Source of the DNA: Methanocella paludicola SANAE
GTDB lineage: Archaea; Halobacteriota; Methanocellia; Methanocellales; Methanocellaceae
Direction: 5' to 3'
Length of the DNA stretch: 64,000 nt
Assembly (NCBI RefSeq): GCF_000011005.1
Contig: NC_013665.1
Span: 1,775,501-1,839,500, forward strand
Part shown: piece after piece, positions 513 to 10,395 of the stretch
Position numbering within the stretch: position 1 is the stretch's first letter
Layout: each line of letters begins with the position of its first letter
Notes under the pieces: generated by a model
Databases searched by the model: none
The model's input: the letters and a program-made list of their open reading frames with translations, nothing else
What the model was told of the DNA's origin: nothing
Made by a program: the position numbers and the translations under genes

Positions 513-2867
513 GTGGTTGCTGTGTTTGGTCTAGGAAAGCCTGATGTTAATAAATTGGAGTCGAGAAGGGATATAAACGGGTTAGTCAAAGCTTTAGATT
601 ATAAAAATGATACGATTGTTCGACAAAATGCCATTAAAGCTTTAGCTAAAATAGGCGGCGACAGTGTAGTTGGATCAATTCTAACAGCGTTCAATGATAG
701 GGATGCCCAGGTTCGCTGTGAGGCTGCCCGGGCGTTTAAAACGATAAGGAATTCTCGTGCGATTGACCCTTTAAAAAAATTACTTCGTGACGAAGAACCG
801 AGTGTCAGGGCTTGTGCGGCTGAAACCCTTAAAAGTATGAATTGGATTCCCGGTAATGATGAATTATCAGCCCGTTTTTATATCGTTATATCCGACTGGG
901 ATAAATGCGCCGATCTAGGGGCAATTGCAGTTGATCCCCTCATGTCCGTACTTAATAACTTGGATAAAGATGACCTTCGTCGGGTCAATATAATTAAGGC
1001 TCTCGGAAAAACTGGTAACGCCTATGCTATAGAGTCGGTTATTAAAGACCCGAAAAATTTTGATTATCTGGAAAAGGTTGCGAAGGCAATATTAAATGAA
1101 CCTAATCCAAGATATATTGAATTCTTAATTAAGTTGGTCGCCGAAGGGAACAAATCTGGATTGGCGTCAATTTCTATTGCTGCCGATTATGCGGCAAAGG
1201 CCCTGGGAAAAATCCATGATAAACGTGTCGTGCAGCTTTTAATAAATTACTTGGCAACTGATATTTATTTATCAAGGGCAACAAATGTTGTCAGAGCATT
1301 GGCCGAGATTGGGGACCCATCGGCTATCGAGCCCCTGGTGAACTTATTGGAACCTAAACGTTCAAGAAATTCGAATTCCGATCGGGATTTTCATGTGGGC
1401 GTTGCCTCGGCGCTTGAAAAGTTGCAATGGCAGCCTGGGAAAGATAGAAGCGGGGCTTATTATTGGGTGTGGAAAAAAAATTGGGCCAAGTGTGTTGAGA
1501 TTGGTTCACCGGCGGTTGAGCCATTATTAGCAGATTGCTCGACTCATTGGGAAGCGATTGAAGCATTGGGGCTAATAGGAGATAAAAGAGCAGTAATACC
1601 TTTGACTGGTGCTTTTGAAAATATTGGTTTAGGCGGCTGGGAAGGCGCAAAACTATGGTATGACGTATCTGCGAATGCTCTTGCTAGGATAGGTGACACC
1701 AGAGCGATAGAACCTTTATTTAAACTATATACCGGTAGATACTGGCGGGCAAAAACAGTTGGTGAAGCTATTGCAATTTTAATTAAAAAGGATCCACAGC
1801 CCCTAATCCGATATATGAACGTCAACGATAGATCTATAAGCGGAGATGCAGAAAAACTGCTTAGGATGGCTGGATACTCTGGTGTTCTTAATGCTTCAAC
1901 ACAGGCGTTAAATAATGGTGGTAGCAACGTAATAGAGCCAGCATCAGAAACTAATCATAAGATAACGGCTGGTAATACGCCAAAACTTGATAAAACGGTC
2001 ACTAAATCAAATGAAAATACGACGATGTATGAATACAATGACGATAAACATTTACCGATAAAAGCAAGCTCAGGACTTGAGCCTCAAGGCATGAAAGGAT
2101 CCGCGTTAATAGATGCGGTAAGAGCAAAAAATTGTGACAGTCTTAGAGAATTATTGATTTCAGGAACTAACCCTAATACTTTTGATGAGGATGGTTTTAC
2201 AGCTCTGATATTAGCAGTATATACTGGAAAAACATGTATCATCGAGTTACTCATCAAAGCAGGCGCAAACCCTAACCTTACCGATAAAAATAATAATGCT
2301 ACTTTGCATCACGCCGTAAGTCTTGGGCATAAGGATATCGTAGAGTTGCTCATCAAAGCAGGCGCAAACCCTAACCTTACCGATAAAAATAGCTTTATGG
2401 CTTTGTCTCGAGCGGCAAACCTTGGGCATAAGGATATCGTAGAATTACTCATCAAAGCAGGCTCAAACCTTGATATTAAGGACATTAATGGCAGAACTGC
2501 TTTGATCTACGCGGTAAGAAACAGGCATAAGGATATCGTAGAATTACTCATCAAAGCAGGCTCAAACCTTGATATTAAGGATATAACAGGCTGTACAGCT
2601 CTGATCTACGCAGCAAGCCTCGGACATAAGGATATCGTAGAATTACTCATCAAATCGAACGCGAACTTAGATATTCAGGATATCCCTGGCAGTACAGCTC
2701 TGATCTACGCAGCAAGCCTCGGACATAAGGATATCGTAGAATTACTCATCAAAGCAAAAGCGAATCCTAACCTGATAGATAAAACAGGAATGAATGCTTT
2801 GGCATATAGTGAAGCTAGCGGGTATAAAGATATCGCACTCATTATAGAAAACGCATCAAAATTCTAA
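513..2867 (+). CDS. HEAT-repeat / ankyrin-repeat fusion protein
   Basis: A 784-residue protein made of two kinds of helical repeat. Residues 1-440 are HEAT (PBS-lyase type) repeats. They include two copies of a Trp-containing module (WIPGNDELSARFYIV and WQPGKDRSGAYYWV) followed by a KC-IG-AV-PL stretch, a combination I associate with archaeal HEAT proteins. A polar linker (about 470-526) leads to eight 33-residue ankyrin repeats (527-784) with the core HKDIVELLIKAG. There is no signal peptide or membrane segment, so it is probably a cytoplasmic protein-binding scaffold. Start is GTG; a second GTG at 522 is equally plausible and gives the N-terminus MFGLGKPDVNKL. The gene stands alone in AT-rich DNA of the integrated element. 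The partner protein is unknown. Confidence 0.85.
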   Translation: MVAVFGLGKPDVNKLESRRDINGLVKALDYKNDTIVRQNAIKALAKIGGDSVVGSILTAFNDRDAQVRCEAARAFKTIRNSRAIDPLKKLLRDEEPSVRACAAETLKSMNWIPGNDELSARFYIVISDWDKCADLGAIAVDPLMSVLNNLDKDDLRRVNIIKALGKTGNAYAIESVIKDPKNFDYLEKVAKAILNEPNPRYIEFLIKLVAEGNKSGLASISIAADYAAKALGKIHDKRVVQLLINYLATDIYLSRATNVVRALAEIGDPSAIEPLVNLLEPKRSRNSNSDRDFHVGVASALEKLQWQPGKDRSGAYYWVWKKNWAKCVEIGSPAVEPLLADCSTHWEAIEALGLIGDKRAVIPLTGAFENIGLGGWEGAKLWYDVSANALARIGDTRAIEPLFKLYTGRYWRAKTVGEAIAILIKKDPQPLIRYMNVNDRSISGDAEKLLRMAGYSGVLNASTQALNNGGSNVIEPASETNHKITAGNTPKLDKTVTKSNENTTMYEYNDDKHLPIKASSGLEPQGMKGSALIDAVRAKNCDSLRELLISGTNPNTFDEDGFTALILAVYTGKTCIIELLIKAGANPNLTDKNNNATLHHAVSLGHKDIVELLIKAGANPNLTDKNSFMALSRAANLGHKDIVELLIKAGSNLDIKDINGRTALIYAVRNRHKDIVELLIKAGSNLDIKDITGCTALIYAASLGHKDIVELLIKSNANLDIQDIPGSTALIYAASLGHKDIVELLIKAKANPNLIDKTGMNALAYSEASGYKDIALIIENASKF
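2091..2864 (+). repeat. 99-bp in-gene repeats encoding ankyrin units
   Basis: This stretch is an array of 99-bp units, one per ankyrin repeat. Blocks such as CATAAGGATATCGTAGA recur almost unchanged in five or six consecutive units, and two neighbouring units (about 2248-2290 and 2347-2389) are nearly identical at the DNA level. Conservation of synonymous positions suggests recent duplication or gene conversion rather than old repeats held only by protein selection. Confidence 0.8.
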
Positions 2868-3305: not shown

Positions 3306-4023
3306 ACTCTATCCCCATAATATCATGGGGCCGTCTAAATTTGAACATGGAAATTAAAATTGGGACAAAATATACGTCCGATTACTCATAGTCAAAAATT
3401 TCCTATCCCCCAAGGCAAAAACTTCGGGACTTAAATTTGGCGTTATTTAGCATCCATTTACAATTCACAGTATATTATAAAAATATTTTAGAGTATTTAC
3501 CATTAATTTGGTTACGCTGTGTCGATAAATATTTATTTATCGGCAAATAGGCTATTCAAGGCATTATTAGTGTCAATTTATGATAAAAGACATATATAAG
3601 CCATATTAATTAAAATGTAGGCATGGGGTTTAGGGTTATATATTGCTGAAGCAAAATATGCCCCATGCCTACAAATCGAGCAATAAGCACTTATAATTAT
3701 ATAAGCGTTTATCTGTCGTGGTTATGCGGCCAGGTTATATGGTAGGCGAGCGAAATTATGGTTGTTGGAATACCCTATAGCCTATATTTAATATTAGTTG
3801 GCCAACGTATGAACTAATATTTAGACGTATGCTTTGTTCTCGATCACATAAACATAAATTGATTTATCATAAAAAGTATCAAATTTTGACTTCTAAATAT
3901 CAGCAATTTTCGAGAGGGAAATAAGAACGCACTTTCAGAGAGAAATTTTTGTCCTTTTGTAGATACTTGGTAGTCACTTAGTAGACATATCTTAGAAAAT
4001 ATGAAAGGCATGCGTCATCATTT
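3306..4023. other. AT-rich non-coding stretch
   Basis: No convincing gene is visible here on either strand: all frames are short and lack ribosome sites. Apart from the hairpin at 3616-3673 the DNA is simple AT-rich sequence leading into the iteron cluster. Confidence 0.5.
3616..3673. repeat. 13-bp perfect inverted repeat (hairpin)
   Basis: TGTAGGCATGGGG at 3616-3628 is answered exactly by CCCCATGCCTACA at 3661-3673, with a 32-base loop. It lies in a gene-free AT-rich region about 350 bp from the iteron cluster. It could be a replication-related structure, a protein-binding site or a terminator of an unseen transcript. Confidence 0.6.
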
Positions 4024-4213
4024 TAGACACTTTAGACACTTTCTTCCGAAAAAAGTTTTTTATTTTTATTATATCATTATTTTGTAAATTTAAAAGTTTT
4101 TTTAAAAAGAAGTGTCTAAAGTGTCTACAAAAATAGAAAAATTACTGACGTTCATCGAAAAAATTGTAGACACTTCTAAAAAAAAGTGTCTAACGAGTGT
4201 CTACAAGTGTCTA
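4024..4213. other. candidate replication origin: AGTGTCTA iterons around an AT-rich core
   Basis: The octamer AGTGTCTA occurs eight times within 190 bp. On the plus strand it starts at 4111, 4120, 4185, 4196 and 4206. On the minus strand it covers 4024-4031, 4033-4040 and 4167-4174. Two inverted copies 9 bp apart and two direct copies 9 bp apart flank about 70 bp of almost pure A/T (4041-4110), the layout of an iteron origin with a DNA-unwinding element. It lies just downstream of the helicase and primase genes. The initiator could be one of the two small proteins of that operon. No experimental support is implied. Confidence 0.6.
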
Positions 4214-4219
4214 CCATTT

Positions 4220-4351
4220 TCACTTATGGTTGGTACTCGGTACACTCACCCTAACGCCTTTCCAGTACCGAGTATCCTTACGTTCCTGCGGAAAACCCAT
4301 TCCTTTTAACTTGCTGGATAGTTCCCGCTGTGTTATATTATTGCTGTAATC
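4220..4351 (-). pseudogene. in-frame continuation of the D5 helicase beyond a TGA
   Basis: After the TGA at 4352-4354 the helicase frame stays open for 43 more codons, to a TGA at 4220-4222. The peptide (NITQRELSSKLKGMGF, then RDT-like residues and RYWKGVRV) looks like the C-terminal winged-helix segment that normally ends P4/D5-type helicases. Either the TGA is a recent nonsense mutation (one base from TGG), or it is read through, or the shorter protein is functional. It is marked as a remnant because the stop is real in this sequence. Confidence 0.6.
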
Positions 4352-5671
4352 TCACTCGTTCATACAGAACTTTTTAAATTCCAGGTACATTACAGCATTA
4401 TCCATAGTGCTTTTCTCATCCCTGAAAATGCAGGTATTAACGAATGCAGCGACCATATCAGCTTCGTTCCAAACGTCCTCTGTTGCATCTGCTACAGCCT
4501 CGACCATATTTTTAGGGTTAGCCTCGCCATCGCAGGACATGTAACCTTCAATAAGCCGGTTCAGAATTCCGCTAATTTCTTTTAGGAGCTTATCCTTTAA
4601 CTCCACATCATCATTTTCATCATCGATGTTGAGGTTGAATGGTATTACCCTTATTCTTCGGGACATTGCAAGACTCTTGTTCATCTTGGGAGTGGTATTC
4701 GTTAAAATTATCAGTGTCCCGCATGGCTTGAACATGAAAGGATCACAGTATTTCCGCTCAGCGGGAATCATATCTCCACCAGCATATTGCTTAATCAATG
4801 CCTCGTTGAATGCGCTACCGTCAGCCGGTTCATTAACGAATATGATACGCTTTTCTATGGTGTCGTATAGATCGAACCGTCCCTCTCCCTCATGTTTTTT
4901 GGAGAACACCTTACCTGGCTTTTCAATAGCGTAACCGTCAAGGATATGCTCTATGACATCCCTTAGAACGCCTTTGCCGTTCCGTCCCGCTCCCTTGAAT
5001 ATAAATGCTAACTGCTTATCCGTCCGGCCACTTATGCAGTAACCGAGTGATGTGAGCAAATATTTTTTCAAGTCGGCATCCTCGCAAGTTATTTCATTAA
5101 GGAATTTATCGAATAAGGGGCAGATAGCCTCTGGATCGTATTTCACATTATAGATATGAGTGAAATACATCTCTTTCGTTTGCTCATGGTGTATTAGTGT
5201 CCCTTTATCCAGGTCGAGGACGCCATTTAAACAGTTTATCATACGGCTGTTCTTGTCTAGATCATTCTTTTTAATGAATAGTCCTGTTGCCTCAGATTTA
5301 AGCTGTATGATTATACCGTTTTGCCTGTTAGTATTTTCCAGGCTATTCGTATATTTAAATGCAGCATTCCTCGCTTTTTCGTCCTTGATGTGTTCCGTTC
5401 GTGCTTGGAATTCAGGGGCCATTAACGAGATAAGCCTGCGCACATTTGTATTGCGGTCATCCAATTCCCAGTAACGCCCGTTCCAGACTAAAAATCGATC
5501 ATCTTCTACAACATACTTTACATCTTTATTATAGAAAAAGTCGAACCAGTGGGCCATACAAGCCTCTGTATATTTCAACTCGACCGCTGGAGGATTGCCA
5601 GCCTCATTCTTAAAGGCTGACGTAAGCGTTTGTAACGACTCCTTATCAAGATATGGGTGATCAGCAATCAT
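4352..5671 (-). CDS. D5/P4-type replicative helicase (SF3), C-terminally shortened
   Basis: A 439-residue helicase of the phage/plasmid D5-P4 family, expected to unwind DNA during replication of the element. A D5_N-like region (about 130-215) precedes the SF3 ATPase. Walker A is GAGRNGKG (227-234), the Walker B-like strand is RIIFVNEP (275-282) and the sensor Asn is in LIILTN (320-325). Its ATG overlaps the stop of the primase gene by four bases (ATGA), so the two are translationally coupled, together replacing the single primase-helicase of many elements. The C-terminus stops at a TGA after KKFCMNE although the family's final domain is still encoded in frame downstream. Confidence 0.88.
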   Translation of the reverse strand: MIADHPYLDKESLQTLTSAFKNEAGNPPAVELKYTEACMAHWFDFFYNKDVKYVVEDDRFLVWNGRYWELDDRNTNVRRLISLMAPEFQARTEHIKDEKARNAAFKYTNSLENTNRQNGIIIQLKSEATGLFIKKNDLDKNSRMINCLNGVLDLDKGTLIHHEQTKEMYFTHIYNVKYDPEAICPLFDKFLNEITCEDADLKKYLLTSLGYCISGRTDKQLAFIFKGAGRNGKGVLRDVIEHILDGYAIEKPGKVFSKKHEGEGRFDLYDTIEKRIIFVNEPADGSAFNEALIKQYAGGDMIPAERKYCDPFMFKPCGTLIILTNTTPKMNKSLAMSRRIRVIPFNLNIDDENDDVELKDKLLKEISGILNRLIEGYMSCDGEANPKNMVEAVADATEDVWNEADMVAAFVNTCIFRDEKSTMDNAVMYLEFKKFCMNE

Positions 5672-6402
5672 TGGTTAACGCCTTCCTGGTATTTCAGCAT
5701 CCATATAGCCGCTTGTTCATAGGTAAGCCTCATATCACGAAGTTGACAAGCGAAAACGTACCCAGAATTATTCCTACCGATGTATTTTGCTCTCCGTATA
5801 GCCTGACGTAGAAAGTCATTTATTATCCGGTTCATTTGCTTACTCGGTATTCTGGATAATTCAACACGAACGCCTATACACTCTTTTTTCGGTGGTCTGG
5901 CAAGCACTTCCAGCAGTTCTGGCAGATCTTCAGGTCTGGTGTTTAAAAGTGTCTTTTCACTAGTGAACGTATAGCCGCCTTTCTCGGTTACAGTGGGGTA
6001 GCAGTATGCTAAATTACGTCCTGCCGTGACTTCTATGCTTATACCATCAATCTGAACTGTATATTTGCCGCCTTTTATTCCTTTGAAGTATACGTGTCTG
6101 CCGTCACCCTGCGTTTTTTCAATGATACAGCCCTTGAATGTTCCGACTTGCTCAAGTTTATGGTATACTGTCATACCATTAGGTTCCGCTGTATGTGCAT
6201 CAAAATCGACATAACATACTATATCTTCGCAGAGGATGGCACAGTTGGCATTAGCTGGTTGCCCTTTCCATACTTCATCGAAGTCATAATCTTCCTTATG
6301 GACTGTTGACCAGTAGTAATATGTTTGCTTTTTATTGGATATCGCTGGTATGGTGAGGTATCCATTATCATTTATAGTCCTGATATCTGGATTTATGGCC
6401 AT
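5668..6402 (-). CDS. Prim-Pol type primase/polymerase domain protein
   Basis: About 244 residues with features of the bifunctional primase-polymerase (Prim-Pol, AEP-like) domain. The acidic pair is in CYVDFDAH (Asp66, Asp68) and a conserved His is in GDGRHVYFK (His103). A third acidic position probably lies near IDGISIEV. The start MAINPDIRTI was chosen because AGGGTG stands six bases before it. The frame is open 34 codons further upstream but that part overlaps the preceding small gene. The protein probably lays primers for the element, with the helicase encoded immediately downstream. Confidence 0.8.
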   Translation of the reverse strand: MAINPDIRTINDNGYLTIPAISNKKQTYYYWSTVHKEDYDFDEVWKGQPANANCAILCEDIVCYVDFDAHTAEPNGMTVYHKLEQVGTFKGCIIEKTQGDGRHVYFKGIKGGKYTVQIDGISIEVTAGRNLAYCYPTVTEKGGYTFTSEKTLLNTRPEDLPELLEVLARPPKKECIGVRVELSRIPSKQMNRIINDFLRQAIRRAKYIGRNNSGYVFACQLRDMRLTYEQAAIWMLKYQEGVNQ

Positions 6403-6618: not shown

Positions 6619-6885
6619 TTAAGCCCTACGCTGTTTAGGATATGGCCGACTTCCTAAAGTAACAATAGTGTGCCATACGTCTATTTTCAAATTGATATAA
6701 TCACATTCGGCCAATAAGCGAAGGCGTCTCAAGGTTTTTGTACGTTGACTTACTGTAAAGGCCTCTCCCCATACTCCCCTGATAAGATCGATAGCTCTTA
6801 ATTCTCGATTTTGCGCTTTGACATAGGCGATTATCATGGAGTCGATGCTATCATATTTCAATTTTTTTGGACTTGTTTCTATCAT
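6619..6885 (-). CDS. small winged-helix-like DNA-binding protein
   Basis: An 88-residue basic protein, first gene of the replication operon. The pattern IDLIRGVWGEAFTVSQRTKTLRRLRLL followed by a hydrophobic turn is compatible with a helix-turn-helix or winged helix. The ATG at 6885 has GAAGG eight bases upstream; a TTG five codons earlier is a weaker alternative. It may be the regulator of its own promoter, which contains several inverted repeats, or an origin-binding protein for the AGTGTCTA sites. Both roles are inferred. Confidence 0.6.
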   Translation of the reverse strand: MIETSPKKLKYDSIDSMIIAYVKAQNRELRAIDLIRGVWGEAFTVSQRTKTLRRLRLLAECDYINLKIDVWHTIVTLGSRPYPKQRRA

Positions 6886-6911
6886 AGTGGTTGCCTTCAA
6901 ATTTTTTAGAA

Positions 6912-10328: not shown

Positions 10329-10374
10329 TTCCTTGGTATGGAAGAGGCCTCGGGTTCAATTCCCGAAGTGTCCA
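10329..10374 (+). other. displaced 3' half of a tRNA gene (putative attachment site)
   Basis: The bases from 10329 read as the right half of a tRNA: anticodon loop TTGGTAT, stem GGAAG, variable bases, T-arm TCGGGTTCAATTCCCGA (10350-10366), acceptor strand AGTGTCC and discriminator A at 10374. No matching acceptor 5' strand or D-arm precedes it, so it is a fragment. Read as a normal seven-base loop, the anticodon would be GGT (Thr). Such fragments are left when a tyrosine recombinase integrates an element into a tRNA gene. The composition changes here from AT-rich to GC-rich. The intact tRNA would lie left of the window. Confidence 0.75.
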
Positions 10375-10395
10375 CTTAGCATTTTTCAAAAATTT

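What the first reader, a model, noticed from the sequence alone, without database searches (positions are those of the whole stretch)
4024..4213. Iteron cluster resembling an origin beside a Prim-Pol/D5 replication operon
Seen: eight copies of AGTGTCTA in both orientations, two at 9-bp spacing on each side of about 70 bp of nearly pure A/T. Known: iteron arrays next to an unwinding element form plasmid and virus origins. Inference: with the primase and helicase next door, this is a candidate origin of the integrated element, which may still replicate when excised.
Basis: partly seen in the sequence, partly recalled or inferred. Interest (0 to 1): 0.62.

Follow-up and report, generated by a model that had tools for sequence, protein, structure and literature searches.

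The report
Iteron origin of an archaeal integrated plasmid
Eight identical 8-letter repeats beside a helicase gene are very probably the replication start site of a 13.6-kb plasmid-like element inserted in a methanogen chromosome; the layout matches bacterial satellites such as P4 and SaPI, but the helicase that should bind the site carries a premature stop, so the element may be unable to replicate on its own.

Summary
The repeats are real: 8 exact AGTGTCTA copies lie in 190 bp, out of 18 in the whole 2.96-Mb genome. Two 9-bp-spaced pairs face away from each other across a 70-bp, 87% A/T spacer; four more copies lie on the D5 side. They sit inside a 13.6-kb element bounded by a tRNA-Ala gene with a tyrosine integrase (attL) and a 49-bp copy of the tRNA 3' part (attR), and begin 6 bp after the full D5 helicase frame. 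In 41 other archaeal D5 loci, repeat clusters of different sequence sit at the D5 3' end far more often than chance or than behind other genes; in one genus all six copies change sequence together. This is the anatomy of SaPI/PICI and P4 origins, where the helicase's own C-terminal domain binds iterons downstream of its gene; the mapped pRN1 origin has a similar dyad. Best reading: iteron origin of a P4/SaPI-type replicon. Caveats: D5 has an in-frame TGA before the DNA-recognition half of its winged helix, so autonomous replication is doubtful; no binding or replication data exist; a blind search for the same motif and geometry found no D5 genes, though several hits abut other primase or helicase genes.

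The parts
4024..4040 (-). Inner iteron pair, left arm of the dyad (two AGTGTCTA, 9-bp period AAGTGTCTA)
   Evidence: geometry detector
4041..4110 (.). A/T-rich spacer, putative melting site (87% A/T; overlaps one of the least stable 70-bp stretches of the element)
4111..4127 (+). Inner iteron pair, right arm of the dyad
4167..4174 (-). Single iteron, opposite orientation
4185..4213 (+). Outer iteron triplet, spacing 11 and 10 bp, 6 bp from the end of the full D5 frame (P4 ori1 repeats also show 10/11 spacing)
3960..3978 (-). Two degenerate iterons (one mismatch each, 11 bp apart, same flanks as 4196/4206)
4220..5671 (-). D5-type SF3 helicase frame (D5_N PF08706, DUF5906); the frame runs on past the TGA at 4352-4354 to a stop at 4220-4222 with a conserved winged-helix tail
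4352..4354 (-). In-frame TGA that cuts the winged helix after its first helix
5668..6504 (-). Prim-Pol (AEP) gene overlapping D5 by ATGA; probable start ATG at 6402
   Evidence: (PF09250 E=2.9e-6)
6619..6900 (-). Small gene at the head of the replication operon, possible regulator; no family match
10329..10377 (+). attR: 49-bp copy (46/49) of the 3' part of tRNA-Ala(GGC); attL lies upstream of the window at genome 1772247-1772295, with the integrase frame overlapping the tRNA gene

Best explanation
The array is the replication origin of a 13.6-kb integrated plasmid-like element. The AGTGTCTA copies are binding sites for the C-terminal winged-helix domain of the element's own D5-type SF3 helicase, which works with the Prim-Pol encoded just upstream. 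Sites in opposite orientation on both sides of the A/T-rich spacer would load two helicase hexamers facing each other; they would melt the spacer, the Prim-Pol would prime, and host polymerases would copy the excised circle. Shown here: repeats, dyad geometry, element boundaries, gene order, position and concerted evolution in relatives. Inferred: binding, melting, direction and use in vivo. Because the D5 gene has a premature TGA before the recognition part of the winged helix, the present copy is probably defective or was inactivated recently (all eight sites are still identical), unless the stop is read through or is a sequence error.
For: Repeats far above chance. tRNA-Ala attL/attR and tyrosine integrase. 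Array lies between converging gene ends (HEAT/ankyrin gene ends at 2867 on +, D5 frame ends at 4220 on -), not a promoter position. Clusters of at least 4 exact 8-mers sit at the D5 3' end in 12 of 41 other archaeal D5 loci, each with its own word. The doublet-spacer-inverted-doublet geometry occurs in 20 of 42 loci against 2 of 210 shuffled ones, 10 at the D5 3' end against 1.0 expected, spacer mostly 71-76 bp; only 5 of 211 other ORF ends have it, P=9e-6. In one genus six sites at fixed positions change together (TGTAACCG, TGTTACCG, TGTTGCCG); between L058 and L072 all 12 site differences are the same two positions in all six copies while the rest is 93% identical. P4: crr octamers directly behind the alpha gene, 9-bp spacing. 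PICI: always two iteron sets flanking an AT-rich region (PMC6092414). SaPI Rep C-terminus recognises iterons directly downstream of rep (PMC7581432). The best PDB sequence match of D5 is 7ola (E=2.7e-10), listed as 'DNA primase' (from memory the SaPI5 self-loading helicase).
Against: No binding, copy-number or excision data. D5 is truncated before its recognition helix. 22 of 42 D5 loci show no dyad and in several it lies elsewhere, e.g. in L037, the nearest relative, 4.9 kb away. The dyad detector does not call P4 itself, whose arrangement differs. A blind search with this motif and geometry in viral and genome collections returned no D5 gene. For the related pRN1 origin no specific binding was found in vitro, and a symmetry-restoring double mutant favours a hairpin.
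Confidence: 0.83

Rival explanations
1. Stem-loop (cruciform) origin as proposed for pRN1: the inner inverted pairs form a hairpin with an A/T loop, and structure rather than repeated words is recognised.
For: 4018-4133 folds as single-stranded DNA with a long perfect stem, z=-5.4. The pRN1 origin was mapped to a 100-bp stem-loop behind the rep gene, and one stem mutation was rescued by restoring symmetry. pDL10 and pSSVx keep an inverted repeat without a clear doublet (read from the sequence printed).
Against: Four exact copies (4167, 4185, 4196, 4206) lie outside the stem. In L058/L063/L072/L077 six copies in mixed orientation change together, which a single hairpin does not explain. In SCC elements deleting inverted repeats did not affect Cch2 binding while deleting direct repeats abolished it.
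Confidence: 0.1
2. Operator array for a transcription regulator (for example the small proteins upstream of Prim-Pol) rather than an origin.
For: Repeated 8-bp sites and small uncharacterised proteins in the same element; iterons often double as operators (general knowledge).
Against: The sites lie behind the 3' ends of converging genes, not at a promoter. Dyads are tied to D5 gene ends, not to gene ends in general.
Confidence: 0.04
3. Relic: the array was an origin but the element is dead and the sites have no function now. This concerns present activity, not the identity of the array, so it is compatible with the best explanation.
For: In-frame TGA in D5; attL and attR differ at 3 of 49 positions.
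Against: Eight of eight core sites are identical, so decay is at most recent; the SF3 Walker motifs and Prim-Pol catalytic motifs read intact in the translations.
Confidence: 0.5

Closest known systems
SaPI/PICI pri-rep-ori replicon (Ubeda 2007 as cited in PMC7581432; PMC6092414; PMC9894130)
   Same: Integrase-bearing element; primase plus self-loading D5/SF3-type helicase; origin directly behind the helicase gene; two oppositely oriented iteron sets around an A/T-rich region
   Different: Archaeal host, tRNA-Ala site, no helper-phage interference or packaging genes recognised, D5 interrupted; binding not tested
Satellite phage P4 alpha/ori/crr (NC_001609)
   Same: 8-bp repeats in both orientations with 9-bp and 10/11-bp spacing; crr lies directly 3' of the primase-helicase gene; alpha binds with a C-terminal winged helix (cited in PMC4234260)
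   Different: P4 has a Toprim primase, two separate iteron regions, and no strict doublet dyad
Sulfolobus plasmid pRN1 minimal origin (PMC4234260)
   Same: AEP primase, SF3 helicase, winged helix; about 100-bp origin within 166 bp behind the rep gene; its arms hold two TGTCCA words 9 bp apart with a spacer of about 60 bp
   Different: Described as a stem-loop without iterons; a single dyad without extra copies; primase and helicase fused; specific binding not found in vitro

Membership tests
SaPI/PICI/P4-type helicase-adjacent iteron origin | SF3/D5-family primase-helicase gene next to the array | tested here: met
SaPI/PICI/P4-type helicase-adjacent iteron origin | Iterons directly downstream of the helicase gene, two sets around an A/T-rich region | tested here: met
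SaPI/PICI/P4-type helicase-adjacent iteron origin | Intact C-terminal DNA-binding domain in the helicase | tested here: not met
   Homologous tail present but behind an in-frame TGA; this lowers the claim of a working replicon, not the claim about the kind of origin
SaPI/PICI/P4-type helicase-adjacent iteron origin | Helicase binds the iterons and the segment replicates autonomously | not testable with these tools
   needs bench work
PICI (as an element) | Helper-phage interference or packaging genes and a phage-responsive master repressor | tested here: not met
   No such family among the element ORFs scanned, several of which have no family match at all; the element is not called a PICI
pRN plasmid family | Fused AEP-SF3 replication protein | tested here: not met
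   Prim-Pol and D5 are separate overlapping genes
Integrated element at a tRNA gene | Tyrosine integrase, tRNA attL and partial-tRNA attR | tested here: met

The most novel reading that the evidence does not exclude
A fixed design, two initiator sites about 9 bp apart on each side of a roughly 70-bp melting spacer placed behind the initiator-helicase gene, is a common origin type of Prim-Pol/D5 replicons from archaea to bacterial satellites and phages, and the pRN1 'stem-loop' origin is one of these iteron dyads rather than a structure-recognised hairpin.
Probability: 0.4. Interest if true: 0.66.

Novelty: new member of a known kind. Interest (0 to 1): 0.5.

Why it matters
The only archaeal Prim-Pol/SF3 origin mapped in the papers found here (pRN1) was described as a stem-loop without iterons. 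This locus and its relatives show iteron arrays behind the helicase gene in euryarchaeal elements, with words that change in concert. That ties archaeal integrated plasmids to the P4/SaPI replication scheme and gives a sequence rule for finding the origins of such elements and for building archaeal vectors.

Tried and rejected
D5 homologue scans of genome contigs and viral contigs with the single protein gave nothing; the phylum-wide genome search replaced them. A blind DNA search with AGACACNNNAGACACN{60,90}GTGTCTNNNGTGTCT gave 7 viral and 12 genome contigs but no D5 gene. L091 and L089 have a primase-family gene ending 68 and 339 bp from the dyad; the Prevotella-type contigs (L092, L095, L097, L099, one lineage) have a long gene ending 271-294 bp away, shown to be DnaG-type only in L092; L100 has a VapE-like helicase gene ending 6 bp away. 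Several Verrucomicrobiota hits look like dispersed repeats. So the geometry is not specific to D5. The read-through D5 model without an alignment was unusable (mean pLDDT 35), so no fold search was run. BPP-1 and two haloarchaeal plasmids showed no convincing dyad behind the rep gene.

Full report
Observation. In the whole single-contig genome of 2,957,635 bp there are 18, eight of them in these 190 bp. The unit is better written AAGTGTCTA, so each inner pair is a tandem of a 9-bp unit; two one-mismatch copies with the same flanks lie further left at 3960 and 3971. The 70-bp spacer between the inner pairs is 87% A/T and is overlapped by the second least stable 70-bp stretch of the element.

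Element. Upstream of the window lies tRNA-Ala(GGC), overlapped by the start of a tyrosine integrase frame. A 49-bp copy of the tRNA 3' part (46/49 identical) lies at window 10329-10377. The interval, 13,582 bp from repeat to repeat, is mostly of lower G+C than its surroundings and holds the integrase, an unknown 416-aa protein, a HEAT/ankyrin protein, the array, D5, Prim-Pol, a small upstream gene, an HSDR_N-type protein and HNH-type genes. The array lies between converging gene ends, so it is not in a promoter position.

D5. The open frame is 439 aa, but the same frame continues after a TGA (4352-4354) for 43 codons to a stop at 4220-4222. That tail is homologous to the C-termini of other archaeal D5 proteins (best E=3e-11, alignment running through the stop), and Pfam Pox_D5 matches across the stop but below its cut-off (E=0.014). 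By the predicted helices and by analogy with the winged helices of relatives, the stop falls after the first helix, so the recognition part is lost if the stop is real. The nearest iteron ends 6 bp from the end of the full frame.

Relatives. 75 of 393 genomes of the phylum hold a D5 relative; the nearest is 35% identical. I fetched 41 loci and looked for short repeats without assuming any sequence. In 12 of them a cluster of at least four exact 8-mers sits at the D5 3' end, each with its own word: for example GTGTCCAA in L040, GGTATCAA in L064, AAGTGTCT in L065, ACCTGTTC in L075. Five more have clusters inside the 3' end of the frame. A geometry detector (two words 8-11 bp apart, then the inverted pair) finds a call in 20 of 42 loci against 2 of 210 shuffled loci; 10 calls lie at the D5 3' end (1.0 expected) and their spacers are 55, 71, 72, 72, 72, 74, 74, 75, 76 and 107 bp. 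Only 5 of 211 other ORF ends in the same loci have one. About half of the loci have none, and in some the dyad is elsewhere, so the rule is a tendency, not a law. The detector thresholds were set after seeing the window's array, which is a reason for caution; the shuffles and the other-ORF control use the same thresholds.

Concerted change. In L058, L063, L072 and L077 (one genus) an array of sites at nearly fixed positions starts 2-3 bp behind the D5 stop. Between L058 and L072 two letters of the word differ in all six copies (36/48 site columns identical) while the other columns are 93% identical; between L063 and L077 the sites are 47/48 identical and the rest 85%. The D5 tails of L058 and L072 also differ at several residues. 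This is what co-evolving protein-binding sites look like.

Known systems. In P4 the crr octamers lie directly behind the alpha gene, with 9-bp spacing, and ori1 repeats are 10 and 11 bp apart. PICI origins always have two iteron sets around an AT-rich region (PMC6092414). SaPI Rep recognises iterons directly downstream of its gene with its C-terminal domain, and SCC Cch2 binds direct repeats behind its own gene (PMC7581432); oppositely oriented SaPI repeats are described as loading two head-to-head hexamers (PMC9894130). For archaea, the pRN1 origin was mapped within 166 bp behind the rep gene and described as a stem-loop lacking iterons (PMC4234260). Its arms nevertheless contain two TGTCCA words 9 bp apart and are separated by about 60 bp; pHEN7 and pRN2 look similar, while in pDL10 and pSSVx I see an inverted repeat without a clear doublet. 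The pRN1 symmetry-rescue mutant and the failure to see specific binding speak for the hairpin there, so this reinterpretation is open.

Blind test. Searching collections with the motif and geometry alone found 19 contigs, more than random sequence would be expected to give for 24 fixed letters, but no D5 gene. In L089, L091, L092 and L100 a primase- or helicase-family gene ends 6 to 339 bp from the dyad, and L095, L097 and L099 look like the L092 lineage; others are dispersed repeats or unexplained phage arrays. The prediction therefore held only in the loose form 'primase or helicase next door', and only for part of the hits.

Verdict. Origin of a P4/SaPI-type replicon in an archaeal integrated element, about 0.83; present autonomous replication doubtful because of the TGA. 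A new member of a known kind, with a wider comparative pattern that deserves testing.

Noticed in passing
L087, L088, L089, L090, L091, L093, L102, L103 (positions): Phage and bacterial contigs with inverted arrays of AGACAC words at 9-bp spacing around a spacer rich in alternating purine-pyrimidine (CGCGCG, Z-DNA-prone); only L089 and L091 shown to abut a primase-family gene.
   Followed up: partly
L096, L098, L101, L104, L105: Dispersed AAAGACACGAAAGACACG... dyads in a Verrucomicrobiota bin and one Planctomycetota contig, probably REP/MITE-like repeats.
   Followed up: no
window 513-2867: 784-aa protein with HEAT repeats at the N-terminus and ankyrin repeats at the C-terminus inside the element; some ankyrin units are nearly identical DNA copies, suggesting recent expansion.
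   Followed up: no
L053, L055, L059, L068, L073: Short repeat clusters inside the 3' end of the D5 reading frame itself, as if the origin were embedded in the coding sequence.
   Followed up: no
L037 (position -4919 relative to the D5 stop): The nearest D5 relative has a perfect doublet dyad (CGCCAAG) nearly 5 kb upstream of the D5 3' end, not behind the gene.
   Followed up: no
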